A DNA stretch of 64,000 nucleotides from positions 120,611-184,610 of the forward strand of contig NZ_JH992958.1 in the NCBI RefSeq assembly GCF_000315445.1. Direction: 5' to 3'. The notes beneath the pieces were generated by a model that saw only the letters and a program-made list of their open reading frames with translations, did not search any database and had not been told where the DNA came from. A program made the position numbers and the translations under genes. This DNA comes from Alloiococcus otitis ATCC 51267. GTDB lineage: Bacteria > Bacillota > Bacilli > Lactobacillales > Carnobacteriaceae_A. Numbering within the stretch: position 1 is the stretch's first letter; each line of letters starts with the position of its first letter. This document shows positions 1-63,971 of the stretch, piece after piece.

Positions 1-140
1 CTAAGCAATTGTAGAACTTCGACTAGTAAATTCTATAATCGCTAAGCAATTGTAGAACTTCGACTAGTAAATTCTATAATCGCTAAGCAATTGTAGAACT
101 TCGACTTGCAAATTCTATAATCACTGATCAATAGTAGAAG
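1..140. repeat. 41-bp-period palindrome array, family A (locus A1)
   Basis: Three tandem copies of a 41-bp unit plus a degenerate fourth run in from the left window edge. Each unit is an inverted repeat, ATTCTATAAT, nine bases, then ATTGTAGAAC, followed by a 12-bp spacer. Left arms start at 30, 71 and 112 and right arms at 8, 49, 90 and 131, so every step is exactly 41 bp. The first arm is already in phase at position 8, so the array probably continues outside the window. There is no coding potential here. The same family is found at 23718-23787 and around the IS256-type element. Confidence 0.9.
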
Positions 141-235
141 TTTAGAAAGTCACTTTCATTTCAGGTCAGTCCCCAAACCCAGACTGACCTACACAGAGTT
201 TGAGACTTGATTCGACATTACTTTATGGCTTTCCC

Positions 236-366
236 ATTGTCGCCTTTCAACTCTCAAAGTACCGAATGGCTGACCCATTGTCGCCTTTCAACTCTGAAAG
301 TACCGTATGACTACCCGATTGTCGCCTTTTAACTCCAAAACTTCCTTATTTTCATTTATTGTCCAG
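236..366. repeat. 41-bp-period repeat array, family C
   Basis: Copies of ATTGTCGCCTTTCAACTC start at 236 and 277, with a diverged copy at 318 and a weak one at 358 (steps 41, 41, 40). Between copies a CCGAATGG-type arm faces the next CCATTGTCG, giving an imperfect inverted repeat. The sequence differs from families A and B but the period is the same. Two diverged copies of the core also lie at 29171 and 29209. The array sits downstream of the terminator of the agaS operon. Confidence 0.7.
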
Positions 367-445
367 TTTCAAGTCCAAAACCAGCCTATTCTGACCATTT
401 ACACAGTTTCATCCCCCAAGCCAACCACAGTCCAACCCCATAGCG

Positions 446-490
446 AAAAAGCCTAGCCAAGCTGTCGGGCAGCTGTGGCTAGGCTTTTTT
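446..490 (-). terminator. Rho-independent terminator after agaS
   Basis: Inverted repeat AAAAAGCCTAGCC ... GGCTAGGCTTTTTT, with a T-run on both strands. It lies 20 bp beyond the agaS stop and closes the bgaC-PTS-agaS operon. Confidence 0.85.
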
Positions 491-510
491 CTATTCTTTA
501 GCAAGTAGAC

Positions 511-1674
511 TTATTTGTCGTAGTCGTAGATGACGACCCCTTGGACTACCCGGTTGACGGTTCCAGTTGGGGATGGGGTGTCTGGTTTGTTACCGACCTT
601 GACAGCGGTATGCAAGGAGACGGTTTGACCTAAGATGACGTAGGGGAGGACCAAGTAAGCATCCGGCACTTCAAGGTCACTATCTAAGACAAATTGTTTA
701 GCATCATGGTCCAATTTTTTGGTTGAGACTGAGAGGACCTGGTTGGCAATTTTGTCGTGGTAAACTTCATTCATGATGTCTTCTTCGTATTGGCGGGTGT
801 AAGCATCATTGGTAGCAAATAGGATAACAACAGTCTCTTCATTGACAAAGGATTTTGGCCCGTGACGGAAGCCCAGTGGGGTTTCGTATTGGGTTGCGAT
901 TTGACCAGCTGTTAGCTCTAAGATTTTCAACTGGCTTTCCTTGGCTAGGCCAAAGAAGTTGGCTCCACCCAGGTAGACCACCCGGTTAAAGTTACCAGAA
1001 ACCAGGTCAGCGATTTCGTCTTCCCGGTCGATAACTTGTCCGCCTAATTTGACAATTTGCCGAGCCCAGTCAATTTTTTGGCTGAGGTCAGTCGGGTCAA
1101 ATAAGAAGAGGGCAGACAAGGCCATACAAGTGTAAGACCCAGTCATAGCAAAGCCTTGGTCGTTGGAAAGCTCTGGCTGTAAAATCAAAAGGTTGTCGTC
1201 TGATTTTTCAGCAGCTTGGGCCAATTTCCCTTCTTTGGAACAAGTGATGGTGATGTGGTAGAGGTCTTTGACGATTTTGTCAGCTACATTGACTGCTGCC
1301 ACACTCTCTGGTGAGTTCCCAGACCGGGCAAAGGAGACCAAGACGGTTGGCACATCTTCTTTTAGGTAGTATTCCGGTGTGGCAACCAAATCGGTAGTGG
1401 CAATGGCCTCAAAGGAAAGCTTGCCTTCTCCTTCCACCTTGTTCAAGTATTCCTTGATACTTTCACCGACAAAGGCCGAGGTTCCTGCCCCGGTGAAAAT
1501 AACCCGGGTGTGGTCGTGGCGGTCTTTGATAGTAGACAGGAAGTTGGCGTAATACTCGCCGTTTGTTTCAAAGTCTTGGATAACTTCTTCCCATAAAGCG
1601 GGTTGCTGCTTGATCTCACGGGTGGTGATGTCAGCACCTAAATCTTTTAATTCTTGGTCAGTTTTGTTAAACAT
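511..1674 (-). CDS. agaS: SIS-domain sugar isomerase/deaminase AgaS
   Basis: A 387-residue protein with two SIS (sugar isomerase) domains; the first opens with the phosphosugar-binding segment FTGAGTSAFVGESI near residue 65, and a second SIS fold occupies the C-terminal half. Members of this family deaminate and isomerise galactosamine 6-phosphate to tagatose 6-phosphate in the cytoplasm. I chose the ATG at 1674 because AAGGAG lies six bases upstream; an upstream in-frame ATG has no such site. It is the last gene of the bgaC-PTS operon, the same order as in Streptococcus pneumoniae. Its product would enter the tagatose pathway encoded at 8739-12908. Confidence 0.85.
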   Translation of the reverse strand: MFNKTDQELKDLGADITTREIKQQPALWEEVIQDFETNGEYYANFLSTIKDRHDHTRVIFTGAGTSAFVGESIKEYLNKVEGEGKLSFEAIATTDLVATPEYYLKEDVPTVLVSFARSGNSPESVAAVNVADKIVKDLYHITITCSKEGKLAQAAEKSDDNLLILQPELSNDQGFAMTGSYTCMALSALFLFDPTDLSQKIDWARQIVKLGGQVIDREDEIADLVSGNFNRVVYLGGANFFGLAKESQLKILELTAGQIATQYETPLGFRHGPKSFVNEETVVILFATNDAYTRQYEEDIMNEVYHDKIANQVLSVSTKKLDHDAKQFVLDSDLEVPDAYLVLPYVILGQTVSLHTAVKVGNKPDTPSPTGTVNRVVQGVVIYDYDK

Positions 1675-1770
1675 GTCAATCTCCTTCATACAATGACTTG
1701 GACAAGTTAAGCAATGAACTGGGGCACAAACTTAAGCTAGGCCTGGGTGACCCCAGGCCCAAAGCTCAAG

Positions 1771-2154
1771 TTATTTGCCTAACATATCGTTGATTTTGAG
1801 GATGTTTTCTTTAGCTTTTTCGCTGTAGTCCACGTCCCCTTCTTCCAACATTTCAGCGTTGACAAAGGCAATGACCATAGGCAGGTTCATGCCAGCGTAA
1901 ACTGGGAAGTCGTCCCCTTCCAAGAGGTAGCGGGCCACCACATTATTGGGGGTTCCACCGGATAGGTCAGTGAAGACGACAAAGTCTTCCAAGCCAGACT
2001 TGGCCTCTTCAAACTTGGCCTTGAAGTCTTCCTGACTTTCTTGGGGTTCCAAGCTGATCGCAGTAATATTTTCTTGTGGCCCCATAATCATTTCGGCACT
2101 TTTCTTGATGGCTTGTGATAAGTCACCGTGACTTGCTAAAATTAAGTGTTTCAC
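1771..2154 (-). CDS. PTS mannose-family EIIA component
   Basis: 127 residues, the usual length of a stand-alone mannose-type EIIA domain. The phosphorylated histidine is His9 in LILASHGDLSQ. It takes phosphate from HPr and passes it to the EIIB at 3932-4414. The start is GTG, preceded by AAGGACGG. It lies between the EIID gene and agaS in a minus-strand operon. The substrate cannot be read from sequence; the BgaC/AgaS context points to a beta-galactoside or N-acetylgalactosamine-type sugar. Confidence 0.88.
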   Translation of the reverse strand: MKHLILASHGDLSQAIKKSAEMIMGPQENITAISLEPQESQEDFKAKFEEAKSGLEDFVVFTDLSGGTPNNVVARYLLEGDDFPVYAGMNLPMVIAFVNAEMLEEGDVDYSEKAKENILKINDMLGK

Positions 2155-2183
2155 TTTTTCCGTCCTTCCTTACAAGATTTGTT

Positions 2184-3005
2184 TTATACGAGGATACCTA
2201 AGGCAGATAAGATAACTGACACAATAAGGACTATAAAGATAGCCTTGGTCGAGGTCATGTTCTCCCTTCCTAGTAGCCAGTAAACAAAACCGACGATAAG
2301 GGCGGGAACTGCTTTTGGCATAATCATATCAAAGATGTTTTGGACATCAACGGCAACCCCTGCTATCTCTGGGGTGATGCCAATGTTGACGTTAATCATG
2401 GTTGCGACCAAGGCCCCAACCATGAAGACCCCAAGTAGGGTTGCAGCATCGGTAAAGGCTGACAATTGGCCTTGGAGGTCACTAACCAGTTTGGTCCCTG
2501 AACGGTAAGCGTATTTCAATTGGCTCCATCTGAACACACATATAACAATCCCGGCAATAATCCAAAGCAAAATACCAAGTGGGTTCCCGTTTGCCCCTAA
2601 GTTAGCCCCGATAGCACCAAAGATAGCTGGCACCAAGGCACCGAAGAGGGAGTCCCCAACGGCTGCGAAAGACCCCATCAAACCTGCCTTGACACCTGCA
2701 GCTGATTCAACGGCTTCAATTCCTTCTTTTTCCTCAATGGACAAGTCGATACCGGTAATTACGGTGTTGAAGAATGGGGAGGTGTTGAAGAATTGGGCGT
2801 GGGTTCTCATGGCTTCTTTTAGTTCATCGGTATTGTCCCCATACATCTTACGGAGTTGGGGCAAGATGTGGTAGAGGTAGCCGGACCCTTGCATCCGTTC
2901 ATAGTTCCAACCAATTTGGAAGCCGAATAGAGACCGCAAGTTAATTTGTCTAAAGTCTTTATCGGTTAATTTGTAATTTGTTTTGTTTTCATTAGAGTTC
3001 GTCAT
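2184..3005 (-). CDS. PTS mannose-family EIID component
   Basis: 273 residues with the EIID hallmark FNTSPFFNTVITGIDLSIEE near residue 80, then GLMGSFAAVGDSLFGALVP and several C-terminal membrane helices. With EIIC it forms the membrane channel of a mannose-type PTS. The start overlaps the end of the EIIC gene by 14 bp, suggesting translational coupling. GGAGGGAGAG precedes the ATG. Confidence 0.9.
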   Translation of the reverse strand: MTNSNENKTNYKLTDKDFRQINLRSLFGFQIGWNYERMQGSGYLYHILPQLRKMYGDNTDELKEAMRTHAQFFNTSPFFNTVITGIDLSIEEKEGIEAVESAAGVKAGLMGSFAAVGDSLFGALVPAIFGAIGANLGANGNPLGILLWIIAGIVICVFRWSQLKYAYRSGTKLVSDLQGQLSAFTDAATLLGVFMVGALVATMINVNIGITPEIAGVAVDVQNIFDMIMPKAVPALIVGFVYWLLGRENMTSTKAIFIVLIVSVILSALGILV

Positions 3006-3915: not shown

Positions 3916-3931
3916 TTGTCTTCCTCCTTAA

Positions 3932-4414
3932 TTAGCTTTCTTCTTTGAGTAATTTCATGAAGTCTTTAGCGTTGTCATTCGGCACCATTTGGGCGGTAAG
4001 CTGGATGCCTTTATCTTTCAACTCTTTAAAGACTTCAACGTCTTCGTCCGTTACATTAATGGAGTTGGTGATGGACCGCGTTTGGTCGGTTTGGGACATG
4101 TTCCCCACATTAATTTTGTCGATGGCAACCCCCTTGTCCACCAATTCTAGGTAGACTTGCGGATTTTTAGCCACCAGCATGACCCGTTGAGACTTGTAGC
4201 GGTCTTCCTTCAGCTGCTTAGCTGCCCGGTCAATCGGCAAAACGGACAGGCGCATGGAAGCTGGGGTGGCAAGTCTTAAACCTGACTTCTCCACGTCGCT
4301 TTCAGACACCTTGTCGTCAATCACGATAAAACGGTCGAGCTGGAGCTTGGACCCCCATAAGTTGGCTACCTGGCCGTGGATGAGACGACCATCTATTCTT
4401 GAACCGATTATCAT
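3932..4414 (-). CDS. PTS mannose-family EIIB component
   Basis: 160 residues, typical of an EIIB of this family. The N-terminal signature IDGRLIHGQVANLWG contains the phospho-accepting His13. It transfers phosphate from EIIA to the incoming sugar in the cytoplasm. AAGGAGG precedes the ATG. It is the first PTS gene after the beta-galactosidase gene, as in the pneumococcal bgaC locus. Confidence 0.9.
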   Translation of the reverse strand: MIIGSRIDGRLIHGQVANLWGSKLQLDRFIVIDDKVSESDVEKSGLRLATPASMRLSVLPIDRAAKQLKEDRYKSQRVMLVAKNPQVYLELVDKGVAIDKINVGNMSQTDQTRSITNSINVTDEDVEVFKELKDKGIQLTAQMVPNDNAKDFMKLLKEES

Positions 4415-4449
4415 ATTCTTCCTCCTTATTTTTGGGAATAACCCTTGGG

Positions 4450-6243
4450 CTAGTCCTCTTTCATTTTTTTATACACATGGTTAGCTTTAAAGGAAAGGTT
4501 TGGTGCATATTTCCCTTCCGTTTCGAAAATAGTGACCTCATTGACCCCTTCTTTAAGGAAGGCTTTCGGTAGGTAAAGGGACAAGGTTGGGCCCAGGTCC
4601 CAGAACCGGCCTAGGTTATGACCATTGACTAGGACAATTCCCTTGCCAAAGTCTGACAAGTCAATGTAGGTATCTTCTAGGTCATCAAAAGTAACATTGA
4701 ATTTGTAGAAACTTGGCAAGCCTTCTTTGAAGTCTTTTTCCAAACTGTAATCAATTTGGTCGACCCGGTCAAAGTCGATCAAGTACTGGCGCCAGTTTGT
4801 CAAGAAGTGAAGGTCTGAGGTAACCCCTTGCCGAATCCCTTTTTCCTGGGTGTCGGCTAAAAGCTTGTGGCCGTAGTTGACCCGGCCCATATTTTCAACC
4901 AAGACATCCAACTTGTTAGACTCTTCCAAAGGTCCAGTAGTGATGTCTTCCCCGATTTCTTCTTGGTACTGGGTAGCTAGGTGCTGGTCATTTAAAAAGA
5001 CATGGGCCCGGTCCCGGCCATCGATAACCCGGAGCCGCTCTTCTTCATCCACATCTTTGACAAAGTCGGTTTGGTAAAGGATGTAACCATAGTGCTGGCC
5101 CAATTCATCCATGGACCGGGTGTACAAGCTGTCGACTCGGTCCGCCACTTGGTCTAGGCTGTCTACCAGGTTGACCTTGGCTTCCAGCTGGACATTTTCT
5201 TGTGCAGTGGACTCTTTGACAAGGGGTTCAGCCTGGTCAATATCAGGAAATTCTTCCTTGATCATTTTTTGGATGGCATAGTATTTTTCAGTTGGGTTGC
5301 CTTGTTCATCTAGTGGGGCACCGTAGTCGTAAGAAGTGATCTGGTGGAGGTCATGAGTCCCTCGGGCAGAACAGCCATTCATAAAGCCAAAGTTAGTCCC
5401 ACCTTGGAACATGTAGAGGTTGACACTGCCTAATTGGACGGCCTCTCTTAGGGCTTCCACCAATTCATCTGTTTCCCGGGTGACAATGGGCTCACCCCAG
5501 CGGTTAAACCAACCACACCAGAATTCCATGACCATAAGGGGCCATTCTTTACCAATCTTGTCGTGGAAGTCTTTCAAGTTGCCAAAGTTCTCTTTGGCTT
5601 TGGACCCGAAGTTACCGGTAATCAGGATGTCTTCGTCAATATCCGTTAAGGTTCCTGCTCGAAGGGTAGCCAACCATGCCCCGTCTGAGGTACAGAGGGG
5701 AACGTCAGCCCCGTGAGCCTTCATGCTGTCGTAAACGCCCTTCAAGTAGTCCTTGTCTTCCCCGTAAGACCCGTATTCGTTCTCGATTTGCATCATCAAG
5801 ATTGGGCCACCATGGGTAAATTGGAGGTCGCCCACTTCTTTAAAGAGTCTGGCAAAGAACTTGTCGACGAGTTCTAAGAAAGCAGGGTCGGAGCTTCTCG
5901 GATGGAGGTCTTCATTGATGATCCAGCCTGGCAAACCACCGTATTCCCATTCGGCACAAATGTAAGGGCTGGGTCTTAAGATGACGTAAAGGCCAAGCTC
6001 TTCTGCTTCTTTGATAAAGGCCTTGACATCCAAGTTGCCTGAAAAGTCAAAGTGTCCGGGCTCTGGTTCGTGAACATTCCAAGGCACATAAGTCTCCACT
6101 GTGTTGAAACCAAGCGCTTTTAGGTTGTATAGGGAATGGTGCCAGTCAGCTCGAGGGATACGGAAGTAATGGATGGCCCCCGAAAGAAATTGAAATGGCT
6201 CTCCGTCTAAGTAAAACTTGTCCTTGATTTGAAAATCTGTCAC
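4450..6243 (-). CDS. bgaC: GH35 beta-galactosidase BgaC
   Basis: 597 residues, close to the roughly 595 of pneumococcal BgaC. The GH35 acid/base motif QIENEYGSYG is present (Glu156), with the nucleophile in VMEFWCGWF (Glu240). The C-terminal half has jelly-roll-like sequence (GHNLGRFWDLGPT). There is no signal peptide, so the enzyme may be cytoplasmic or surface-associated by non-classical export, as reported for the streptococcal enzyme. The family prefers beta-1,3-linked galactose. Translation starts at GTG with AGGAGG upstream. It is the first gene of the operon and lies directly behind a promoter with a cre-like site. Confidence 0.9.
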   Translation of the reverse strand: MTDFQIKDKFYLDGEPFQFLSGAIHYFRIPRADWHHSLYNLKALGFNTVETYVPWNVHEPEPGHFDFSGNLDVKAFIKEAEELGLYVILRPSPYICAEWEYGGLPGWIINEDLHPRSSDPAFLELVDKFFARLFKEVGDLQFTHGGPILMMQIENEYGSYGEDKDYLKGVYDSMKAHGADVPLCTSDGAWLATLRAGTLTDIDEDILITGNFGSKAKENFGNLKDFHDKIGKEWPLMVMEFWCGWFNRWGEPIVTRETDELVEALREAVQLGSVNLYMFQGGTNFGFMNGCSARGTHDLHQITSYDYGAPLDEQGNPTEKYYAIQKMIKEEFPDIDQAEPLVKESTAQENVQLEAKVNLVDSLDQVADRVDSLYTRSMDELGQHYGYILYQTDFVKDVDEEERLRVIDGRDRAHVFLNDQHLATQYQEEIGEDITTGPLEESNKLDVLVENMGRVNYGHKLLADTQEKGIRQGVTSDLHFLTNWRQYLIDFDRVDQIDYSLEKDFKEGLPSFYKFNVTFDDLEDTYIDLSDFGKGIVLVNGHNLGRFWDLGPTLSLYLPKAFLKEGVNEVTIFETEGKYAPNLSFKANHVYKKMKED

Positions 6244-7917: not shown

Positions 7918-7947
7918 AGTGTCTCCTTCGAAGGTTTTGGGCTAGCT

Positions 7948-13153: not shown

Positions 13154-13345
13154 TTCTCGAATAACAAATGTTATTCGAGAATTTTCCGGGGTTTTTCTCA
13201 AACAACTTAAGTTATATGAGAATTTTCCTGCTGTTTTCTCAAACAACAATTGTTATTCGAGAATTCCCGGTAATTTTTCTCGAACAACTTAAGTTATTCG
13301 AGAATGATCATCTATTTTTCTCAAACTGAACACTAAATTTTAAAA
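13154..13345 (+). repeat. 41-bp-period palindrome array, family B (locus B1)
   Basis: Five units start at 13154, 13195, 13236, 13277 and 13318, all 41 bp apart. Each full unit has 12-bp arms (TTCTCAAACAAC and GTTATTCGAGAA) around four variable bases, followed by a 13-bp T-rich spacer. The last unit is a different, degenerate cap beginning TTCTCAAACTGA. The array lies between two convergent terminators (lacC and metA), so it is not part of either mRNA. Confidence 0.92.
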
Positions 13346-16136: not shown

Positions 16137-16289
16137 TTCTCGAATAAATATTGTTATTTGAGAATTTTCGGGAGATTTTCTCGAACAACTTAAGTTATTC
16201 GAGAATTCTTCCACTTTTTTCTCAAACAACATCTGTTACTCGAGAATTTTCGGTAATTTTTCTCAAACTGAGTACTAAGTTTGAGAATT
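16137..16289 (+). repeat. 41-bp-period palindrome array, family B (locus B2)
   Basis: Units start at 16137, 16178, 16219 and 16260, exactly 41 bp apart. Three have the 12-4-12 palindrome; the fourth is the cap beginning TTCTCAAACTGAG and ending AGTTTGAGAA, as in B1. The array lies between the T-box promoter region and the terminator of nagB, outside both transcripts. Confidence 0.92.
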
Positions 16290-19882: not shown

Positions 19883-19992
19883 TTCTCAAACAACTAGTGT
19901 TATACGAGAATCCGAGCTCATTTTTCTCAAACAACAAGTGTTATACGAGAAACCATCCGATTTTCCTCAAGCTACAGCTGTTATTTGAGAAT
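19883..19992 (+). repeat. 41-bp-period palindrome array, family B (locus B3)
   Basis: Units at 19883, 19924 and a degenerate one at 19964 (steps 41 and 40). Each has TTCTCAAACAAC facing GTTATACGAGAA. The array lies between the ogt terminator and the 3' end of the convergent NERD gene. Confidence 0.88.
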
Positions 19993-23583: not shown

Positions 23584-23717
23584 CATACCTCACTCACTTT
23601 CTAAGTTCGAATTTGAATCATCACTCTTCGGTTAACATTCGTCTGGTCATCTATCTTGCTAGCTTGCTCGATGAAAAAAATCTCTACCTGGCCAACCAGC
23701 CCTAAGCTTTGGGCAGA

Positions 23718-23787
23718 TTCTACAATTGGTCTGCGATTGTAGAATTTCAGCTTCAAGATTCTACAATTAGCCCAGGATTGTCGAATT
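23718..23787. repeat. 41-bp-period palindrome array, family A (locus A2)
   Basis: Two units: ATTCTACAAT at 23718 and 23759 faces ATTGTAGAAT at 23737 and ATTGTCGAAT at 23778, each exactly 41 bp apart. The geometry is 10-9-10 plus 12. The second right arm carries the ATTGTCG variant seen in family C, which links the two families. It lies between the DUF951 and parB genes. Confidence 0.9.
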
Positions 23788-28906: not shown

Positions 28907-29248
28907 AAATTTTATACTGGACCACCGCCTCTGTCAAGCATCGTTATTGAAAGTTTTTTGGAAATTAAAGGCTTTATCCAAATTGAACATGGTAAAGGAC
29001 TCACCAAGGTCACTTATAAATAGTCCCCAGTTTGATAATTTTTCGGCCTTAGCCTTGTGGCAGTTACACTGTCCTTTATAGATGTGGATAGCCTTTCAAT
29101 AAGATTTCTTTTTAACCAGGCTGACATTGAACGCCTTCTACTTCAGTGCTTTTTTTGCCGGTAACCACCAATTGTCGCCTTCCATTCCATGACTCCTTGT
29201 ATCTAGTGATTGTCGCATTTTAAGCTTGGTTGATGCGAAGTTTAAAAA

Positions 29249-29358
29249 TTCTCTTATAACAGTTGTTGTTTGAGAAAAATATTGGGTGATTCTCGAATAA
29301 CTTAAGTTGTTTGAGAATTTCAGCATATAATTCTCAAACTTGGGGTCAAGTTTGAGAA
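29249..29358 (-). repeat. 41-bp-period palindrome array, family B (locus B4)
   Basis: Units at 29249, 29290 and 29331, exactly 41 bp apart. The arm order is reversed relative to B1-B3 (TTGTTTGAGAA on the right), so the array reads on the minus strand. The last unit is the start-cap type, with TTCTCAAACTTG facing CAAGTTTGAGAA. The ISL3 element lies 48 bp away. Two diverged family C cores (29171, 29209) lie just to the left. Confidence 0.9.
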
Positions 29359-29552
29359 TAACGACATTTATTAAAACACCAAGATCAAAAACGAATAATA
29401 AAAAAGGGTTCTACAACATTTGACGTTGGTGAGGGATTCACCAGCGTCATTTTTTTATTTGATGTTTTCGCCCTTTTTTCTTTTATGTATAGAAAAACAA
29501 GTGAATTCCCCTTACAATATAGTCACCACAACTTAAGAAAGGAGAAATTCAC

Positions 29553-30833
29553 TTGCCTCATCAACATGATATTCGAAATTTAATTCAGATTCAAGATGAA
29601 AACATTTCTTTTCAGGAACCGATGACTGAAGGAAGGGAAGTCAAAGGACAAGCGGCCTTAATTCTTCATGCCTCTTTAACCTACACACCACACTGCTGTG
29701 CTAAATGTGGGGTTGTTAACCAAAACGATACGATCATCAAAAATGGCACGCAGGAATCCATGATCACCTTACCCTTTCACCCCTTCAAACCCTTTTATTT
29801 ATGTCTCCGTAAGCAACGCTTTTATTGCCGCTCCTGTGGGAAAACATTTATGGCTTCGACCCATTTGGTTAACTTCAATTGCTTTATTGCCAATCCGCTG
29901 AAAGCTGGAGTAGCCTTTGAAGCAAGTCGGGCGGTTTCATATAAAGATATTGCCGAACGATTAAATATTTCTTAGTCGTCCGTCGCCCGTTTTGCCCGGC
30001 TAGCGGCGAAAGAAAGACGGAAGGGCCCCAAAAGCCTGCCTGCCCACCTGTCCTTTGATGAATTTAAATATAAGAAAGGGAAAATGGCCTTTGACTATAT
30101 TGATGCCGCTACCGGCCAGATCTTAGGCATTGTTTCCGGTCGGACCCAATATAAAATCAACCAACACTTTATCAGCCAGTACAGTCTAAAGGACCGGCAA
30201 CAGGTCCAAACGGTCACCATTGACATGAATGCCGGCTATGTTTCTTGTATTCGTGAACTCTTCCCCCAAGCTAAGATCATCATTGATCGCTTCCACTTAG
30301 TTCAATTGATCAATCGGTCGTTTAACCAAACTAGGATTCAATACATGAACCAACTCAAATCCAACTCTTCGGATCAAAAGAAATATAGGCGACTCAAAGC
30401 TTATTGGAAGCTCTTTTTAAAAAAAGAATCTGACTTATCCTATACGTCCGATCACTTTTACCGTCTCTTTGGTCAACGAACCGAAGCGGGTATTCTTCAG
30501 GAAATGTTAGACTATGATCCGTCCTTAAAACGGCATTACCGGCTTTATCAAGACTTGATAAAGGCCATCCAAGACCAAGACATGGCCAAGCTAGAAGATC
30601 GATTAGCCGTCAACCAAGAAGGATTATCCAGCTACATGAAACGCAGCCTTAAGACCATAGCAAAACACCTCCCCTTTATTGAAAACACCTTTCACTATCC
30701 GTATACCAACGGTAAAATTGAAGGTACCCATCATAAAATCAAAGTCTTAAACCGCATTGCTTATGGCTTCCGAAACCTTGGCAATTACCTCGACCGGATT
30801 TGCCTTTACTTTAGCTCCCAACCCATTCAATAA
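29553..30833 (+). pseudogene. ISL3-family transposase, interrupted by a stop codon
   Basis: The N-terminal part has the ISL3 zinc ribbon (HCCAKCGVVN and YCRSCGK). A TAG at 29973-29975 breaks the frame inside the helix-turn-helix region (AERLNIS, stop, SSVARFARL). The same frame then continues without a gap through the DDE domain (VTIDMNAGY, IIDRFHLVQLIN, NGKIEGTHHKIK) to 30833. One nonsense change therefore separates it from a full-length 426-codon transposase. It is unlikely to move on its own. Confidence 0.92.
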
Positions 30834-42999: not shown

Positions 43000-43110
43000 G
43001 TCTCGGAGCTAAACTTAGACGGTCTAGGTTGTCGACTAAGCTTGCCTCGTTTGGGGGAACTAAACCTAGACGAGCTAGGTTGTCGACTAAACTTGCCTCG
43101 TTTGGAAAGC
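43000..43110. repeat. 51-bp direct repeat between fsa and pgeF
   Basis: Two close copies sharing CTAGGTTGTCGACTAA and CTTGCCTCGTTTGG, at 43024 and 43075, plus a weaker third segment to the left (CTTGTCTCGGAGC). They lie in the 345-bp gap with no ORF. Confidence 0.75.
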
Positions 43111-43992: not shown

Positions 43993-44143
43993 TTCTCAAA
44001 CTTGGGCCTAAGTTTGAGAATTATTTGCTGGTTTTCTCAAACAACTATTGTTATTTGAGAATTTTTTGGTTTTTTTCTCAAACAACTTAAGTTATTCGAG
44101 AATTCACTACCATCTTTCTCAAACAACAACTGTTATACGAGAA
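43993..44143 (+). repeat. 41-bp-period palindrome array, family B (locus B5)
   Basis: Units at 43993, 44034, 44075 and 44116, all 41 bp apart. The first is the start cap (TTCTCAAACTTG ... AAGTTTGAGAA). The other three are 12-4-12 palindromes with centres TATT, TTAA and AACT. The array lies between the pgeF promoter side and the terminator at 44325. Confidence 0.93.
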
Positions 44144-45754: not shown

Positions 45755-45859
45755 ATTCTACCTTTAAACTGCAATTGTAGAATCTCTAACCCAAAATTCT
45801 ACATTCACACAAAAATTATAGAATTTCCGCTCCATAATTCTACAATCCATTCTCAATTG
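45755..45859. repeat. Family A 41-bp array, left half (locus A3)
   Basis: Left arms ATTCTA..AT at 45755, 45796 and 45837 and right arms at 45774 and 45815 are all in 41-bp phase. The third palindrome is cut in its loop by the IS256-type element at 45860. Its missing right arm resumes at 47370. Confidence 0.92.
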
Positions 45860-45962
45860 GATAAAGTCCATATAATTGTGTAAAAAGAAAAAGTCATAAT
45901 GACCTTTTTGAGCTACAATGTAGTTATAAGAAACCAAAAAACACATTGAAAGGAAGATCATT

Positions 45963-47132
45963 ATGACTCAACTCAATCTTACACTAGACGCCAATAAATT
46001 AACAGACGCAATTTTAAATTGTGATCTGGATCAAGTGATGAAATCCACCTTAGTGACGGTCTTAAACGCTTATATGGAGTCCGAGCGCGACCAATATATG
46101 AAAAGCAAGCGGTACGAGCGAGATGAAAATCGCTGTGATTACCGCAATGGGTATTACGAGCGAGATTTCACCACGAAAATCGGCACCCTCAAGCTCAACG
46201 TGCCCAGAACGCGATCAGGCGACTTCCATACCCAATTATTTGAACTCAATCCAAGCGGATGGATCAAGGCCTACTGGCTACCATCTTTGAGATGTACGTC
46301 AATGGCATCTCCACCCGCAAAATGACGAAAGTCGTGGAATCCCTTTGTGGTCAAAAGGTCTCCAAATCGTTTGTCTCCGATGTCAATAAACACCTGGACA
46401 AGGATGTCTTTAACTTTCAAAAGCGGTCCCTCACCCATACTAATTTCCGGTATATCTATGTCGATGCCATGTATATAAAGGTCCGAGAGGATAACCGGGT
46501 GGTGTCCAAAGCTCTTTACATCGCCCAAGGAGTCAATGATGAGAATAGGCGAGAAATCATCGGGTTTAAAGTGGCTGGGCAAGAGTCAACGGAAAGTTGG
46601 CGGTCGTTCTTTCTTGATTTAAAAGCCAGAGGCATTGATACGCCGAAAATGGTGATTTCAGATGCCCATGCAGGCTTACGGAAAGCTATTCAAGAATGTT
46701 TTGTCAACACCACTTGGCAACGCTGTACCTTTCACTTATTAAGCAATATCACCGATGCCTTGCCGAAAACCACGGACCGAGTCATCCGAGATCGTTTCCA
46801 AGCGGTTTTATTTTCCAGAACCCAGCAGGAAGCTCGTGAACGGAAACAGGCTTTGGAGGCGGAGTTCGAAAACCAAGCGAAGCTGGCCAAAGCTTTGAGC
46901 CTATTAGATGAGGGCTTTGAAGATGCCATTCAGTATCAAATTGAGCCTTCTCCTTACCACATGTCTTTAAGAACAACCAAATTCTATCGAACGAGTCAAT
47001 CGTGAAATTCGACGTCGAGAAAGAGTGGTGGGGATTTTCCCCAATATCAAATCCGCGGAACGGCTAGCCGGCTCGGTCTTATTAAACCTGCAGGAGAATT
47101 GGGAAGCTCAGAACTATCGATTTTTACGATAG
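45963..47132 (+). pseudogene. IS256-family transposase with two frameshifts
   Basis: The N-terminal third (MTQLNLTLDANKLTDAILN to FHTQLFE) is in one frame. An extra base near 46245 shifts the frame, and the DDE core continues as LLATIFEMYVNGIST, YVDAMYIK and VISDAHAG. A second extra base in the A-run at 46979-46981 shifts it again before the conserved ERVNREIRRRERVVGIFP tail, which ends at 47132. The family signature is otherwise intact. Both shifts are single insertions; a sequencing error is possible for the A-run. Confidence 0.92.
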
Positions 47133-47182
47133 GCTGAACTTTTTAAACCCCTTTTAAAACCTGCCTCCCTCTGGAAAAGGGG

Positions 47183-47300
47183 CTTTTTCCCTCGGTCACT
47201 TGGCGTAATCTAACACACCGCTGGCTCGCTTCAAGAGAAGCCCACTCTTTCCGCTCGCCAAACGGTGTGTTGGGCCGATCACGCCGACCGACGGAAAAAG
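47183..47300. other. Long imperfect hairpin in the IS256 tail
   Basis: CTTTTTCCCTCGGTC (from 47183) is matched by GACCGACGGAAAAAG (to 47300) at 14 of 15 positions. AACACACCG/CGGTGTGTT pairs further in, giving a stem of over 35 bp around a loop. It lies between the transposase end and the right terminal repeat. Confidence 0.75.
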
Positions 47301-47364
47301 AAAAAGCCCGTAGTATAACATCTGTTACTATATTGTAGAATTTACACATAGATTTGGACTTGAC

Positions 47365-47461
47365 TCTCAATTGTAGAATCTCTACTCCAAAATTCTACAA
47401 TCCTACTGCAATTATAGAATTTCCACTCCATAATTCTACAATCCACCCCCAATTATAGAAT
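47365..47461. repeat. Family A 41-bp array, right half (locus A3)
   Basis: Right arms at 47370, 47411 and 47452 and left arms at 47392 and 47433, in 41-bp phase. Joining 45859 to 47374 rebuilds an uninterrupted palindrome with an exact 41-bp step from 45837 to 47392. It lies just beyond the gcv operon terminator. Confidence 0.92.
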
Positions 47462-58031: not shown

Positions 58032-58182
58032 TTCTCGTATAACAATTGTTGTTTGAGAAAAATAGTGGGGGATTCTCAAATAACAATCGTTGTTTGAGAA
58101 AAACTGTCCAGAATTCTCGAATAACTAGCCTTGTTTGAGAAAAGGCCGGTAAAATTCTCATATAACATTTGTTGTTCGAGAA
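58032..58182 (-). repeat. 41-bp-period palindrome array, family B (locus B6)
   Basis: Units at 58032, 58073, 58114 and 58155, all 41 bp apart, in the reverse orientation (TTCTCGTATAAC facing GTTGTTTGAGAA). A more decayed trace continues to about 58240. It lies beyond the terminator of the 5'-nucleotidase gene. Confidence 0.92.
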
Positions 58183-58269
58183 AAACAGCTGATAACTTTC
58201 GGGCTAGCTTTGGGTTGCAAATAACAACTGTTTTACACAAAAACGCTGCTGACCTATACAGGCAAACAC

Positions 58270-58302
58270 AAAAAGCACCGGTTGGCAATCAACCGGTGCT
58301 TT
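58270..58302 (-). terminator. Terminator after the 5'-nucleotidase gene
   Basis: AAAGCACCGGTTG ... CAACCGGTGCTTTTT on the minus strand, 20 bp after the stop. Confidence 0.88.
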
Positions 58303-58321
58303 GCTTAAAGCGAATGCTTAA

Positions 58322-61045
58322 TTAGTCTTTTTTAGTGAGAACAAGGCCACCTGATAGGGAAAGCAGTCCGAGTGCCCCCAGTAACCAGCCAGCTGTGGCA
58401 GTGTCTGGTAGGGTTTGGCCAGCTTTTTGACTCGTTTCGGCTACTTGACTCAAGTCTTCTGCAGTCACTTGACCTGCTTGGTAGCGGTCAGCAAGTTCTG
58501 CTAATTCTTCTAGGCTAGCGTTTGCGAGTAGGCTAGCAACAAAGTCAGGGCCAAAAGCTTTTTCAATTTCAGCTAGGACTTGGTCAAGTGCTTTAGCAGC
58601 TCTTTCGTAGTCAGCTGGAACAACCACTTGGTCATCTTCTTGAGGGTCAGCTGGAACTGGAGTCAAGTCATCATCTGAAGTTTGGCTGTCATCACCTGGT
58701 TTTTGACCATCTTCTTCAGGATCCTCAACTTCTTGGTCATCACCTGGTGTTTGACCGTCTTCATCTGGACTTTCAACTTCACCATCTGGGTCAGTTTCTG
58801 ACTCATCTGGAATCTGGCCTTCCAAGTCATCTCTGTCAGTGATTTCAGCCACAAGTCTAGCGAGGCTATCAGCATCCAAGGCTTCGTCGCTAACAGTAAT
58901 TCGGCCTTCTGTTTCAGGTGCAATCGGGCCGTCTTGTTGGCGGATGTAGTTGATGAGGACATCAGAGAACAATTCCCCAGTGACCAATTCAACGTCATAG
59001 TCAGCAAACATGGTGTAGCCGTCCCCACCTGCTAGGAGGAAGTCGTTGGTTGCCAAATTGTAGGTCCGGTCTGGGTCTAGCACTTCACCGTTGACTTCAA
59101 CGTAAACAACACGTTGGCCTGGCTCACGAGTAGCATCCACAATGTACTTCAAGCCAGATGCATGCAAGAAGCCACCGTTTTGTTCAGGGTATTGGCGGCT
59201 ACCGTGCTCCAAGGCTTCAAGAATGACAGAACCTGGAACGTTGACTGTTTCCACTAGGTTGATAAATGGTAAGACAGAAACAACATCGCCTAAGGTAATC
59301 TCGCCGGCATCAATGCTGGCCCGGATTCCCCCACCGTTGATGAAGGCAATTTCGGCACCAGTGAATTCTCGAACAGCATCGGTGATCAAGTTACCCAGGT
59401 TGGTTTCCCCTCGTCGGACAAAGTCACGTTCCCCGTTAAGGACCACACTAGTCGATCCGATAACTTCGCCCAGTTCTCTTTCCACTTCAGCTTGGATTTC
59501 CTCAAGCATTTCCTTGATAACTGGGTCTTCTTCACTGCCTTCAACAGCTAGGATATCTTCTGGGTTCCCTACCGTACTGGATGGTAGGTCTTCTAAGATT
59601 TGGTCTAAGTTCTCAGCTAGGGTAAGGTGTTGGGCTGTTTTTTGAACAATATTTCCATTTTCGTCAAAGTCAAGGTGGACTAGACCGATCAATTTACCGT
59701 GTTCCCAAGCTTGGGTGATCAAGGTCTTGTCATTACCGTCCACGTAAGCTCCACCAATTACTGGTGTGTGGGAGTGACCCCCGATAATCAGTTCTACTTC
59801 AGGGTTTTGTCGGGCGATTTCTTGGTCAACCCCGTAACCCACGTGGGAAAGGACGATAAACTTGCTGAATTCTTCAGACAAGGCTTCAATTTGGTCGGAA
59901 ATAGCTTGGACTTCATCGGTAAAGACAATGCCTTCTACATTATTCGGGTGGGTAGAAGTATAGGTTCCTTGGGTAGCTAGGCCGATAATACCGATTTTTT
60001 CACCGAAAACTTCCCATTCGGTAAAGGACTTGAAGAGGTCATTGCCCTCAGTGTCTTTAACATTGGAAGCCACAAATTCAAAGTCAGCCTCTTCTTCCAA
60101 CTCTTTCAAGCGGTCAAAACCGTAGTTGTATTCGTGGTTCCCGGTTGTCATGGCGTGGTAACCCATTTCGTTCATCAGACGGATAATGTTTTCGCCTTCA
60201 GTCAGGTTGACCAAGGTAGTTCCGTGAACGGTGTCACCCGCATCCAACAAAAGAAATTCGTCAGCTAGTTGACGGTAAGCATCAAAAATAGTCTTGATGT
60301 GACCCAAGCCCATGTCGTAGTCAGACTCCCCTTGACGGGTGATCCGGCCGTGAAGGTCGTTGGTAAAGCCAATGGTTGCACGACGGGTGCCGGCTGGTCG
60401 CTCAGGAACAGGCGGTAATTTCAAGTTTGGCGCATGGTCCAAGGAAACTTCAGGGCTGGCTTCTGCTTGAACAGGGCTTTCTTGGTCTTGACCTTGGTCG
60501 GCATCTGAGTCTGCAGTTTGGTCTTGGCTAGGAGTTTCTTCTGTCTCTCCTTCAGAGCTTTCGCCTTCAGCAACTGGATTACTTGCAGCTTCTTGGCCTT
60601 GATCATCCGCTTGACCCTGGCTAGCTTGGTCTTGGTCTGAAACTTCTTGACCTCGGTCGGCAGCTTGGCCTGGCTCTTGGTCCGAAACTCCTTGGTCTGG
60701 TTCAGGATTGGCAAGGGCTTGACCTGATTCAGCTGGACTAGCAGTAACTTGGTCGTCTGTGACTTCTCCTTCATCACTTGCTGGGGCATTTAACACACCT
60801 TGTGCCTGGTCATCCGCTTGAGCTTGACTTAAATTCGCTAGAACTTCATCGTCTGAACCTTCAGGAGTTTGGTCTGAGGCTAAGCCTTGACCCAAATTGC
60901 TTCCGTCACTTGCTTGACCTTCTTGGGCTTGAACATCTTGGGCTGAAATACCAGCTAGGACAAGTCCAGATAAGGTAACAGCTACAAAGTGTTTCTTGAC
61001 TTTTCTCAAAACTTTACGGTGGACACCTTCATTTTGTTGTTTCAC
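58322..61045 (-). CDS. Cell-wall-anchored 5'-nucleotidase / metallophosphatase
   Basis: About 907 residues. A basic start and hydrophobic helix (HFVAVTLSGLVLAGISAQ) form a signal peptide. A Gln/Asp-rich linker of about 170 residues follows. The metallophosphatase domain has NDLHGRI, LLDAGDTVHG, GNHEYNYG and GGHSHTP. The nucleotidase C-terminal domain has INGGGIRAS and LLAGGDGYTMF. An acidic linker leads to LPDTA, a membrane helix and KKD. Surface enzymes of this type release adenosine from nucleotides and can dampen host immunity. I chose the GTG at 61045 (AGGGTG upstream); other starts are possible. Confidence 0.9.
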   Translation of the reverse strand: MKQQNEGVHRKVLRKVKKHFVAVTLSGLVLAGISAQDVQAQEGQASDGSNLGQGLASDQTPEGSDDEVLANLSQAQADDQAQGVLNAPASDEGEVTDDQVTASPAESGQALANPEPDQGVSDQEPGQAADRGQEVSDQDQASQGQADDQGQEAASNPVAEGESSEGETEETPSQDQTADSDADQGQDQESPVQAEASPEVSLDHAPNLKLPPVPERPAGTRRATIGFTNDLHGRITRQGESDYDMGLGHIKTIFDAYRQLADEFLLLDAGDTVHGTTLVNLTEGENIIRLMNEMGYHAMTTGNHEYNYGFDRLKELEEEADFEFVASNVKDTEGNDLFKSFTEWEVFGEKIGIIGLATQGTYTSTHPNNVEGIVFTDEVQAISDQIEALSEEFSKFIVLSHVGYGVDQEIARQNPEVELIIGGHSHTPVIGGAYVDGNDKTLITQAWEHGKLIGLVHLDFDENGNIVQKTAQHLTLAENLDQILEDLPSSTVGNPEDILAVEGSEEDPVIKEMLEEIQAEVERELGEVIGSTSVVLNGERDFVRRGETNLGNLITDAVREFTGAEIAFINGGGIRASIDAGEITLGDVVSVLPFINLVETVNVPGSVILEALEHGSRQYPEQNGGFLHASGLKYIVDATREPGQRVVYVEVNGEVLDPDRTYNLATNDFLLAGGDGYTMFADYDVELVTGELFSDVLINYIRQQDGPIAPETEGRITVSDEALDADSLARLVAEITDRDDLEGQIPDESETDPDGEVESPDEDGQTPGDDQEVEDPEEDGQKPGDDSQTSDDDLTPVPADPQEDDQVVVPADYERAAKALDQVLAEIEKAFGPDFVASLLANASLEELAELADRYQAGQVTAEDLSQVAETSQKAGQTLPDTATAGWLLGALGLLSLSGGLVLTKKD

Positions 61046-61199
61046 GATGTGGAGCACCCTGCTTTCTTTTTTCGTATGTAATAGTCTACATATCAAATAT
61101 ACCATTTTTTCCCAGCCTGGTCTGATAAGAATGTGTATGGTTTAGGCTAATTTTGTGTAAAGGAAAAAAGTCTTTGTAAAGGGGCCACACAAAAGAGTC

Positions 61200-61982
61200 T
61201 TAAGCAAGAGAAGCCAAGGCTTGGTTGAGCTTGTCCCGGATTTGCTTCAGTCCTTTTAGCATCTGGTTTTGCTTAGCCTTTAAGATTTCGTCCGTTGTGG
61301 TCAAAGACAAGGAGTAAACTAAAGCCCCCTCTTGGAAGACGGGGACAGCCAAGGAGGAAAACCCAAGACCCAGTTCCTGATTTTCAATCGAGATTCCTTG
61401 GTCTTTGATCTGGGCCAAGTCTTTCAGCAGGCTTTCCTTGTCAGTGTGGTTGTTGGGGCCAAACTCCTTCCATTCAAATTGGTCAATCACCTGGTCCCGG
61501 TAGTCCGGGTCCAAGTTAGCTAAAATCAGTTTACCAGTCGCTGTGGCATAGAGGGGGAACTCAGTTGACTCATGGACGACCAGGGAATACCTTGCCTGGG
61601 AGGGTTTGGCTTCCATGACAATAGGCGCCTGGGTTCCTTCGATGGACATCATCCGGGTGGAAACGGCAAAGACATCCGCTAGTTGCTGGAGGTCGCTGCG
61701 AACCAGGTTAATCAGCCGGTTGTTAAATTCAAACTGGGCAATCCGAGCTTTTTCCATAAAAACCAAACCTAGCCGGTAAGTGTTGGCCGCCTCATCGTAA
61801 GCCAGGTAATGGTAGTGGAGGAGGGTTTGGACCAAGCCCCGGGTGGTATTAATATTGAGGCCAGTTTTTTGGCTGATCTCATTCAAAGTCAGCTGGCTCT
61901 CATCCTTGCTAAAGCAATTAATAATGGTAAAGGCCCGGGCTAGAGACTGGATAATCTTGTAATTCTTTTTATTGGTAGTCAT
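61200..61982 (-). CDS. IclR-family transcriptional regulator
   Basis: 260 residues. The N-terminal winged helix has LTLNEISQKTGLNINTTRGLVQ, and the C-terminal effector domain ends with GFSSLAVPVFQ and a dimer helix. The ATG at 61982 follows GGGGTG; a GTG four codons upstream is possible. Its target is unclear, since it lies between the nucleotidase gene and a divergent YtxH gene. Confidence 0.87.
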   Translation of the reverse strand: MTTNKKNYKIIQSLARAFTIINCFSKDESQLTLNEISQKTGLNINTTRGLVQTLLHYHYLAYDEAANTYRLGLVFMEKARIAQFEFNNRLINLVRSDLQQLADVFAVSTRMMSIEGTQAPIVMEAKPSQARYSLVVHESTEFPLYATATGKLILANLDPDYRDQVIDQFEWKEFGPNNHTDKESLLKDLAQIKDQGISIENQELGLGFSSLAVPVFQEGALVYSLSLTTTDEILKAKQNQMLKGLKQIRDKLNQALASLA

Positions 61983-62301
61983 AAGAGGATTCACCCCATT
62001 TTTTATGGTATAATGAATATTAATATATTCTAATAAGAAAGTCTTTGACCAAGGGCATTTTTATAATATCGTCTCATTAACGGTAATATCATTATCTTAT
62101 TCTGGCCCACCTTTGTCAATCTTTTCAGCCATTTCCTTACTTTAATTTCTTTGACATAGGACGAGCTTGCCTGCTTCAATTGAAAATTTGGTGCTATTTT
62201 AATTTATTTGTAATGGTATTTCAGAATAATGAGTTAAAGCTATTTCATAGGAAGATTTTTTAGGTTATAATAGGTTTACTACTACACTAGGAGGTATAAT
62301 T
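61983..62301. other. Divergent promoter region, iclR-like and ytxH-like genes
   Basis: 319 bp, AT-rich. On the plus strand TATAAT near 62265 lies about 35 bp before the YtxH gene, with a weak TTTCAT 17 bp upstream. No repeat array is present. Confidence 0.5.
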
Positions 62302-62739
62302 ATGTCATTTTCATCTTTTGTTAAAGGTGCCCTCTTTGGCGCTGGGGTTGCTTTACTTTTTGCACCTAAGAGTGGTGAAGAAACCCGTAAAGATATCCGC
62401 AAAAAATTTGAAGAATCGAAAGATGCAGCCAATGAATATGCTGAGCTTGCTAAAGAAAAAGGCCAAGAATTAGGCGAAGTTGCTGGGGAAGCAGGCGAAA
62501 ACATCCGCATCACCCTAACCAACTCAGCTAAAGACTTGCAAGACTCTCTAGACAAAACTTCCAAAGAGCTTCAAAGTGAAGCGGAAGACTTGAAAGACGA
62601 CATTTCTGAATCTGCTTCAAAAGCAGCTAGCGAAGTCAAAGACACTGCTGAAGACGTTAAGGAAGAAGCAGACGATGCAACCGAAGACGTCATTCAAGAA
62701 GCGAAAGACGCGAAAGAAGAAGCTGAAGACGCAAAATAA
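62302..62739 (+). CDS. YtxH-domain stress protein
   Basis: 145 residues. The N-terminus is a glycine-zipper membrane helix (VKGALFGAGVALLFAPKSGEETRK). The rest is a long charged amphipathic helix rich in Lys, Asp, Glu and Ala, with recurring AEDxKEEA-type heptads, likely a coiled coil. Related proteins are general-stress proteins of unknown mechanism. AGGAGGT precedes the ATG. Confidence 0.85.
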   Translation: MSFSSFVKGALFGAGVALLFAPKSGEETRKDIRKKFEESKDAANEYAELAKEKGQELGEVAGEAGENIRITLTNSAKDLQDSLDKTSKELQSEAEDLKDDISESASKAASEVKDTAEDVKEEADDATEDVIQEAKDAKEEAEDAK

Positions 62740-62747
62740 GTTTCATG

Positions 62748-62778
62748 GAGCTAAAGCCCAGGCTTTGGCTCTTTTTTA
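62748..62778 (+). terminator. Terminator after the YtxH gene
   Basis: GAGCTAAAGCC ... GGCTTTGGCTCTTTTTT hairpin, 8 bp after the stop. The rest of the gap up to 63048 shows no gene. Confidence 0.85.
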
Positions 62779-63048
62779 TGGGTCGAAAATGGTCTATTTA
62801 TATAGAAGAGATTGTTTTTGGAAAAAACAGGGGCCTAATTTTAGGGAGAGATCAGAACTTGAGAAAAATTTAGCTAGAGGCTGGGTTGGGCTAAGGCTAA
62901 AAGCAATTTTCTTCAAGTCGAATTGGGTCAAAAGAGGCCTGGTTAGGACAGGATATTTCCCATGGGCTGGACCTGGCTTGCATAATCCTGACAGTCATTA
63001 TATGCTAACGGGGAGAGATACATAAAAACCATGTGAGGAGCAAGCCAT

Positions 63049-63651
63049 ATGACCAAGCGCAACTTTTATTTTGTCAGACATGGGGAAACCCTTTTTAACC
63101 TACAAGGACGGATTCAAGGCTCGTCCGACTCCCCCTTAACCAAGCGTGGGATTGAACAAGGCAAGATCGCTGGCCAGTACTTCAAGGACCAAGGCATTCG
63201 CTTTGATTCTGCCTATTCTTCAACCCAAGAGCGGGCCAGTGACACCCTAGAATTGATCACCGACTTGGATTACACCAGGGTCAAAGGCTTGAAAGAGTGG
63301 GACTTTGGCACTTACGAAGCTTATCCGTCCTACCTGGTTCCAAGAGACCAATTTTTTACCTACTTCCCCCAATTTGGAGGCGAAAACTTGGATGATGTGA
63401 TCAAACGGGTCAACCAAAGCGTCCAGGATATTGTGACAAAGGATAACGGCCAGTCCATCCTAGTGGTCACCCACAGCATCACCCTCAAGGTCTTTTATGA
63501 AATTTGGAAGGACTACAACCAAATTGAGGAATACCAAGGCGACTTTCCCAATTGTGTCGTCCTCAACTATGAATACGAAGATGGCAAGTTTTCTCTTGTT
63601 GATGTCACTAGCCACGACTTCTCCCAGCTCCAAGACATGCCAAACTTTTAA
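63049..63651 (+). CDS. Histidine phosphatase (phosphoglycerate-mutase superfamily)
   Basis: 200 residues. The catalytic motif FVRHGETLFNLQGRIQG is at residues 8-24, with the second His in VVTHSITLKVF near residue 145. It is too short and divergent for housekeeping Gpm, so a broad-specificity phosphatase is likely. GAGGAG precedes the ATG. Single-gene unit. Confidence 0.88.
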   Translation: MTKRNFYFVRHGETLFNLQGRIQGSSDSPLTKRGIEQGKIAGQYFKDQGIRFDSAYSSTQERASDTLELITDLDYTRVKGLKEWDFGTYEAYPSYLVPRDQFFTYFPQFGGENLDDVIKRVNQSVQDIVTKDNGQSILVVTHSITLKVFYEIWKDYNQIEEYQGDFPNCVVLNYEYEDGKFSLVDVTSHDFSQLQDMPNF

Positions 63652-63656
63652 GAAAA

Positions 63657-63686
63657 AACCGAACAGCCAGAAAGCTGTTCGGTTTT
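63657..63686 (+). terminator. Terminator after the histidine phosphatase gene
   Basis: AACCGAACAGC ... GCTGTTCGGTTTT hairpin, 6 bp after the stop. Confidence 0.9.
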
Positions 63687-63780
63687 CCTTCGTTAGGGCT
63701 ATGGTTAGCGAGGGGGTACGAGAAACTGGTTTTATTTATAACGTAGGTTTTTAATAGGCCGTTGGAGAATGCGGGTGGCA

Positions 63781-63971
63781 TTCTCAAATGACACAAGTTG
63801 TTTGAGAAAAATACTGGGAGATTCTCGAATAACACATGTTGTTTAAAAAACGTGAAGGGGAAGTCTCGTATAACTAGTGTTGTTTGAGAAAACCTGCTAA
63901 AATTCTCGAATAACATGCATTTTTTGAGAAAAAGCCGAGACATTCTCCATTCTAATCCCAAGTTTAAGAAT
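63781..63971 (-). repeat. 41-bp-period palindrome array, family B (locus B7)
   Basis: Units at 63781, 63822, 63863, 63903 and 63943 (steps 41, 41, 40, 40), in the reverse orientation. The last is a decayed start cap (CCCAAGTTTAAGAA). It lies beyond the terminator at 63657. Confidence 0.88.

What the first reader, a model, noticed from the sequence alone, without database searches (positions are those of the whole stretch)
1..63971. Eleven intergenic arrays share an exact 41-bp period across three unrelated sequence families
Palindrome units repeat every 41 bp at A1 (1-140), C (236-366), B1 (13154), B2 (16137), B3 (19883), A2 (23718), B4 (29249), B5 (43993), A3 (45755/47392), B6 (58032) and B7 (63781). 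Family B is 12-4-12 plus a 13-bp spacer; family A is 10-9-10 plus 12. Almost every step is exactly 41, with a few of 40 in decayed units. The arm sequences differ between families, so the period itself, about four helical turns, seems to be what is kept. The spacers are too short and too alike for CRISPR. I know of no described element with these features, but could not search. A protein that binds one face of the helix, or a copy mechanism with a fixed step, would explain it.
Basis: seen in the sequence. Interest (0 to 1): 0.9.

Follow-up and report, generated by a model that had tools for sequence, protein, structure and literature searches.

The report
Repeat arrays locked to 41 bases
Gaps between this bacterium's genes hold repeated DNA units spaced 41 (sometimes 40) letters apart, and a few other bacteria sampled show the same spacing with different sequences, so the spacing rather than the sequence may be what is preserved.

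Summary
All eleven arrays are at the stated places, with steps of 41 bp and a few of 40. They belong to families dispersed over this genome. Searches of other genomes found no B or C copies and one lone chance-level place for A.
Two corrections. Families A and C are related, in one register; only B stands apart. B arrays look like copies of one ordered element: spacers are position-specific, and a terminal unit follows 13 of 24 arrays. This suggests BOX-like spread as blocks.
One extension. Outside this genome, 8 of 13 intergenic arrays of period 25-70 in 2.97 Mb of Lactobacillales and other Bacilli have period 40 or 41, in about six sequence groups with almost no similarity between genera.
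No Y1 transposase or Cas1 was found in this genome. Pairing between arms is not protected at most positions that vary, and 20 of 32 facing gene ends have a terminator match before the B array. I favour a DNA-level constraint, perhaps four helical turns. The protein behind it is unknown.

The parts
1..140 (.). Array A1: about three and a half family-A units, step 41; continues left of the window across a run of 100 N
236..398 (+). Array C: four family-C units (ATTGTCG/ATTGTCC type), steps 41, 41, 40
13154..13304 (-). Array B1: four B units, steps 41, 41, 41
13318..13345 (.). decayed terminal (T-like) unit of B1, in register
16137..16246 (-). Array B2: three B units, steps 41, 41
16260..16287 (.). 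T unit of B2, in register (step 41)
19883..19991 (-). Array B3: three B units, steps 41, 40; no T unit found
23717..23786 (.). Array A2: two A units, step 41
29249..29317 (+). Array B4: two B units, step 41; two C-like starts (ATTGTCGC) lie to its left at 29171 and 29209, 38 apart
29331..29358 (+). T unit of B4, in register (step 41)
43993..44020 (-). T unit of B5, in register (step 41)
44034..44143 (-). Array B5: three B units, steps 41, 41
45755..45846 (.). Array A3, left part: A half-sites at 45755, 45774, 45796, 45815, 45837
47332..47461 (.). Array A3, right part: left-module-like stretch (47332-47367), then A half-sites and units, step 41; an IS256-type transposase ORF (46259-47005) lies between the two parts
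58032..58182 (+). Array B6: four B units, steps 41, 41, 41; no T unit found
63781..63930 (+). Array B7: four B units, steps 41, 41, 40
63943..63970 (+). decayed T-like unit of B7 (5 mismatches), step 40

Best explanation
The arrays are composite, non-coding interspersed repeats of the BOX kind: a row of tandem 41-bp units (one to four in family B, more in A and C), often closed by a terminal unit, perhaps opened by a left module. They spread through intergenic DNA as blocks and gain or lose units locally. Shown here: the fixed step, position-specific spacers, the terminal unit, intergenic place, and the same step in other sequence groups of other Bacilli. Inferred: that block copying explains the ordered spacers, and that the step of 40-41 bp is held because the units are read as double-stranded DNA at four helical turns, so that successive units face the same way, by an unknown protein (a mobiliser or a nucleoid or topology protein). 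Sequence may drift with that protein while the phase may not.
For: Blocks: spacers of one ordinal class (first, middle, last) resemble each other between arrays more (0.526) than those of different classes (0.463); 0 of 2000 label shuffles reach this. T unit at the 3' end of 13 of 24 B arrays (up to 7 mismatches of 21 letters; 10 of 4000 random stretches) and at the 5' end of 4 of 24. Length held while sequence drifts: between arrays spacer identity is 0.49 (shuffled letters 0.37), yet of 61 steps 48 are 41 and 9 are 40 (the identity figures leave out the four steps of 38-39). Period without sequence: 8 of 13 arrays outside this genome are 40/41; average cross-genus similarity is at chance; further loci of the Jeotgalicoccus and Streptococcus families also repeat at 41 (9 of the 22 loci fetched were scanned). 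DNA rather than RNA: in A, arm pair 7 is C.A in 10 of 31 units; in B, pair 6-23 is A.C in 2 of 70 against 3.0 expected, so pairing is not protected there. 20 of 32 gene ends facing a B array have a crude terminator match in between (counted).
Against: No binding protein or mobiliser was identified. Target-site duplication and empty sites could not be tested, since the genus holds only this genome. The left module is weak: motif at 6 of 24 B arrays, chance rate 152 of 4000. B units fold better as RNA on one strand (mean -9.2 against -5.2 kcal/mol, 62 of 70), and their N4 centres are self-complementary in 19 of 70 against 9.8 expected (p 0.003); both hint at pairing of single strands. Steps of 40 and a few of 39 occur but none of 42, which simple phasing around four turns does not predict. 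Other intergenic arrays have periods 29, 35, 44, 52 and 52, and only 3 of the 8 with 40/41 have an inverted repeat clearly above shuffles. The outside sample is small, and part of it (genus g5) was enlarged after a first hit.
Confidence: 0.52

Rival explanations
1. RNA hairpin arrays: the units act as stem-loops in 3' transcripts (stability, processing or attenuation).
For: Family B favours one strand: mean MFE -9.2 against -5.2, better in 62 of 70 units; N4 centres are self-complementary in 19 of 70, expected 9.8.
Against: Pairing is not protected at the varying arm positions of A and B; the family-A N9 hairpin shows no strand preference (-6.55 against -6.25); a terminator match lies between 20 of 32 facing gene ends and the B array; no Rfam family reaches its gathering score in the window.
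Confidence: 0.15
2. Weak bidirectional terminators or insulators between convergent genes.
For: 11 of 24 B arrays lie between convergent genes by crude ORF calls; Fisher p 0.006 against other gaps over 150 bp, on the approximation that all 24 are among the 111 gaps counted.
Against: The strand with the better hairpin is followed by A-rich spacer, not by a U run; separate terminator matches lie beside many arrays.
Confidence: 0.1
3. Passive minisatellites: slippage and recombination with no constraint on the period; 41 is inherited from an ancestral unit in each genome.
For: A and C are related inside this genome; indels may simply be rarer than substitutions; other periods also occur.
Against: It does not explain 40/41 in 6 of 11 sequence groups of other genomes: p about 3e-6 for a uniform period of 25-70, and 0.006 if anything from 38 to 45 counts as a hit (the grouping is mine and the nulls are crude).
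Confidence: 0.2
4. REP/BIME-type elements moved by a resident Y1 (RAYT-type) transposase.
For: Short intergenic palindromes in many copies. PF01797 does match G027, the array-bearing Streptococcus genome (two pieces, one with a stop inside).
Against: PF01797 has no match in this genome, nor in G015-G018, G028 or G060; it matches G014, whose sampled 80 kb showed no intergenic arrays.
Confidence: 0.02
5. CRISPR-like arrays.
For: Partly palindromic repeat with a short spacer of fixed length and a distinct terminal unit. Cas1 matches exist in two array-bearing genomes, G027 and G060.
Against: Spacers of 12-13 bp are alike between loci; no Cas1 match in this genome, G015-G018 or G028.
Confidence: 0.01

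Closest known systems
BOX elements of Streptococcus pneumoniae and BOX-type elements of S. suis (PMC3049150: passages and sections 5 and 7 seen; boxB 45 bp from PMC1315331, passages seen)
   Same: Intergenic composite repeats: end modules around a variable number of tandem central units; predicted hairpins; limited to few species.
   Different: boxB is 45 bp; here units are 41 (40) bp and several unit types keep one register. TIR and TSD are reported for BOX, untested here. No BOX sequence model was run.
BrickBuilt MITE with minisatellite of Porphyromonas gingivalis (PMC4596501: abstract and outline seen)
   Same: Tandem minisatellite with leader and tail subunits, always intergenic.
   Different: 23-bp repeat, another phylum, small inverted-repeat ends reported.
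STAR elements of staphylococci (PMC3532100: passages seen)
   Same: Intergenic direct repeats with copy-number change in place and a distinct last spacer.
   Different: 14-bp GC-rich motif with 40-44 bp spacers at the gapR locus; the motif has no exact match in the 330 kb of this genome held.
Prokaryote satellites survey (PMC6749651: parts 1 and 2 of 5 and passages seen)
   Same: Dispersed non-coding satellite families with long repeats.
   Different: Reported there only for Leptospira (37, 46, 69 bp) and Methanocella (37 bp); I saw no 40-41-bp family in the parts of Table 2 shown.
REP/BIME (features recalled)
   Same: Clusters of intergenic palindromes.
   Different: No Y1 transposase here; head-to-tail units in a 41-bp register.

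Membership tests
BOX-type composite element | tandem central module of variable number closed by a distinct end module | tested here: met
   1-4 good B units per array; T unit at the 3' end of 13 of 24
BOX-type composite element | a distinct module at the other end | tested here: inconclusive
   left motif at 6 of 24 B arrays (chance 152 of 4000) and upstream of 1 of 12 A arrays, with reverse matches downstream of 2 more
BOX-type composite element | terminal inverted repeats and target-site duplication | not tested
   no empty site at hand: the genus holds only this genome
BOX-type composite element | boxB unit of 45 bp | tested here: not met
   units step by 41/40; so called BOX-like, not BOX
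BOX-type composite element | sequence similarity to boxA, boxB, boxC | not tested
   no BOX model was run
REP/BIME with RAYT | Y1 transposase in the genome | tested here: not met
   PF01797: 0 matches in G000
CRISPR | Cas1 in the genome | tested here: not met
   PF01867: 0 matches in G000
CRISPR | unrelated spacers | tested here: not met
   spacers resemble each other across loci
STAR | 14-bp motif T(G/A/T)TGTTG(G/T)GGCCC(C/A) | tested here: not met
   0 exact matches in the window and the other own stretches (motif)
Known structured RNA | match to an Rfam family at its gathering score | tested here: not met
   0 in the window

The most novel reading that the evidence does not exclude
There is a period-defined class of satellite elements in Bacilli: unit sequence turns over freely between and within genera, while a register of 40-41 bp (four helical turns) is held, implying a conserved DNA-phased protein machine that binds, packs or mobilises them.
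Probability: 0.4. Interest if true: 0.85.

Novelty: new variant of a known kind. Interest (0 to 1): 0.62.

Why it matters
Interspersed repeats are normally classed by sequence. Here the unit length recurs with different sequences in this genome's family, a Jeotgalicoccus and a Streptococcus. If a census bears that out, it points to a shared physical rule and makes a search for the responsible protein possible. It would also bear on how BOX-like elements arise and spread.

Tried and rejected
CRISPR in this genome: rejected. REP/RAYT with a resident enzyme: rejected. Known RNA family: none at the gathering score. Plasmid or phage origin: one array (B1) was tried and has no match in either collection. 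Covariation: most arm positions hardly vary, so the test says nothing for them; at the varying ones pairing is not protected, but the N4 centres lean towards self-complementarity. Palindrome as the common feature of the 40/41-bp groups outside: only 3 of 8 arrays (L074 at 18636, L075 at 1, L125) exceed shuffles clearly. A shared ATTCT-type motif across genera: looked for with a pattern that was too narrow, unresolved. The T pattern was two bases short in its loop; corrected. Gene calls are crude longest-ORF calls. In one search two own arrays were counted twice through overlapping stretches; corrected. The groups behind '6 of 11' are mine: L074 (14099), L075 (1) and L075 (9373) are counted as one because their units match above shuffles; L057 is counted apart from L122 and L201 although it resembles both somewhat. 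Literature: nine searches, seen as listings, gave no title or abstract on a 40-41-bp intergenic repeat class; the library lacks most subscription journals.
Full report
What was checked. The window is G000:C2:120611-184610 of a 1.81-Mb genome in 8 contigs. Its genus holds one genome. Its genes fit a Lactobacillales bacterium, and the best YchF matches in the named collection are Lactobacillales and other Bacilli; I do not name the species.

The step. In 24 B arrays of this genome, 46 steps between good units are 41 (39) or 40 (7). With degenerate outer units and the T units caught by the script, 61 steps are 41 (48), 40 (9), 39 (3) and 38 (1). From the last B unit to T the step is 41 in 7, 40 in 3 and 39 in 3 of 13. 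A steps are 20 of 21 at 41; the other spans 100 N. C steps are 28 at 41, 22 at 40, 1 at 30 and 1 at 54. B units were found without using the 41-bp spacing (only a minimum distance of 20), so this is not circular; the search was ungapped within the 28-bp unit, so indels inside units would be missed.

Families in this genome and outside. With up to 3 mismatches B has 76 forward and 77 reverse matches (near-palindromic, most places count twice), A has 33 places, the 40-bp C subtype 24 forward and 19 reverse. Outside: B in 0 of 26 other genomes of the family (up to 2 mismatches) and in none of the named genome collection, from which the own species may be left out (exact pattern); the C subtype in 0 of 147 other genomes of the order; A in 1 of 118 other genomes of the phylum, one place with 2 mismatches, while the backward control also struck one genome.

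Relations between families. Best circular ungapped alignment of unit consensus puts A with C1 (25 of 41, 0 of 60 shuffles) and A with C2, and the three C subtypes together, all on one strand. B does not exceed shuffles against A or any C (65 to 149 of 200 shuffles do as well). So there are two groups, A/C and B. The own consensus strings were composed by eye.

Composite structure. First, middle and last spacers of B arrays resemble their counterparts at other loci (0.526 within a class, 0.463 between, 0 of 2000 label shuffles). A T unit stands after the last B unit in 13 of 24 arrays and before the first in 4 of 24; one array has both. A left motif was found at 6 of 24, weak against chance. 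I read this as copying of multi-unit blocks, as in BOX elements; position-specific selection could give the same pattern.

Period without sequence. TRF on 731 kb of other genomes of the family, 1.55 Mb in 80 named records around ychF and 690 kb from 40 genomes of the order gave 13 intergenic arrays of period 25-70 with at least 2.4 copies: 8 have 40 or 41, the rest 29, 35, 44, 52 and 52. The family set is not blind, since I took more contigs of genus g5 after its first hit. The other two sets were not chosen for arrays; there 3 of 5 arrays have period 41 (p 0.0008 under a uniform period of 25-70). A 0.29-Mb sample of the phylum gave 4 arrays of period 65-67 in one place, which look like a CRISPR. 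Searches for the unit in the Jeotgalicoccus and Streptococcus genomes found further loci; in the Jeotgalicoccus five contigs hold rows of places at 41 or its multiples, with lone places elsewhere and one match of the backward control. TRF on 9 of the 22 loci fetched shows period 41 in each, some with two unit types in one row, and also an array of 227 bp. Mean cross-genus similarity is at chance (z 0.16, 85 pairs); the strongest pair is L057-L122, 22 of 41, 0 of 60 shuffles. One g5 unit pattern was found at a single place in G018 and in none of three sister genomes.

DNA or RNA. B arms are nearly invariant, so covariation is mostly untestable; where they vary, A.C is about as frequent as expected. 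In A, pair 7 is C.A in 10 of 31. Against this, B folds better on one strand and its N4 centres are self-complementary more often than expected (19 of 70, expected 9.8, p 0.003). The strand with the better hairpin carries A-rich spacer, so these are not ordinary terminators. By crude gene calls, 20 of 32 gene ends facing a B array have a terminator match in between and 11 of 24 arrays lie between convergent genes.

Mechanism. I favour BOX-like composite repeats whose units are constrained as DNA at four helical turns. The fixed step is solid, block spread well supported, recurrence of the period moderately so, the phasing protein only inferred. No Y1 transposase or Cas1 is found in this genome; the Streptococcus genome G027 has matches to both and G060 to Cas1.

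Literature. Seen: BOX (PMC3049150, passages and sections 5 and 7), boxB of 45 bp (PMC1315331, passages), STAR (PMC3532100, passages), BrickBuilt (PMC4596501, abstract and outline), the prokaryote satellite survey (PMC6749651, parts 1 and 2 of 5 and passages). None of what I saw reports a 40-41-bp class. Searches.

Noticed in passing
G000:C2:120511-120610 (just left of the window); L013 4526-4625; L022 4546-4645; L023 4963-5197; L074 2893-3017: Runs of N sit directly in or beside several arrays (assembly gaps, or stretches withheld); the window starts right after one. True unit numbers there are unknown.
   Followed up: partly
window 45865-47332: An IS256-type transposase ORF (46259-47005) lies between two parts of an A array, as if an IS had inserted into or beside it.
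   Followed up: no
window 29400-30833: An ISL3-type transposase split over two ORFs (29553-29975, 30084-30833) follows array B4; a GGTTCTACAACATTTGAC-like stretch near it recurs beside the B array at C5:60406 and resembles the GTTCTACAAT arm of some A units.
   Followed up: no
L028 about 4907-4982 and L012 about 4964-5040: Nearly the same 75-bp stretch, on opposite strands, lies beside an A array and a B array; it looks like a group II intron end (recalled, not tested).
   Followed up: no
L084 11330, L091 7445, L103 14518, L186 3161: Intergenic tandem arrays with period 121-124 bp in several genomes; three times 41 is 123. May be coincidence.
   Followed up: no
window 43005-43105: A 51-bp direct duplication, about 0.9 kb from array B5 on the other side of the pgeF-like gene, outside the 41-bp register.
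   Followed up: no
L016 4600-4800 and 7579-7830: Two B arrays 3 kb apart adjoin nearly the same sequence, as if a gene end had been duplicated together with its array.
   Followed up: no
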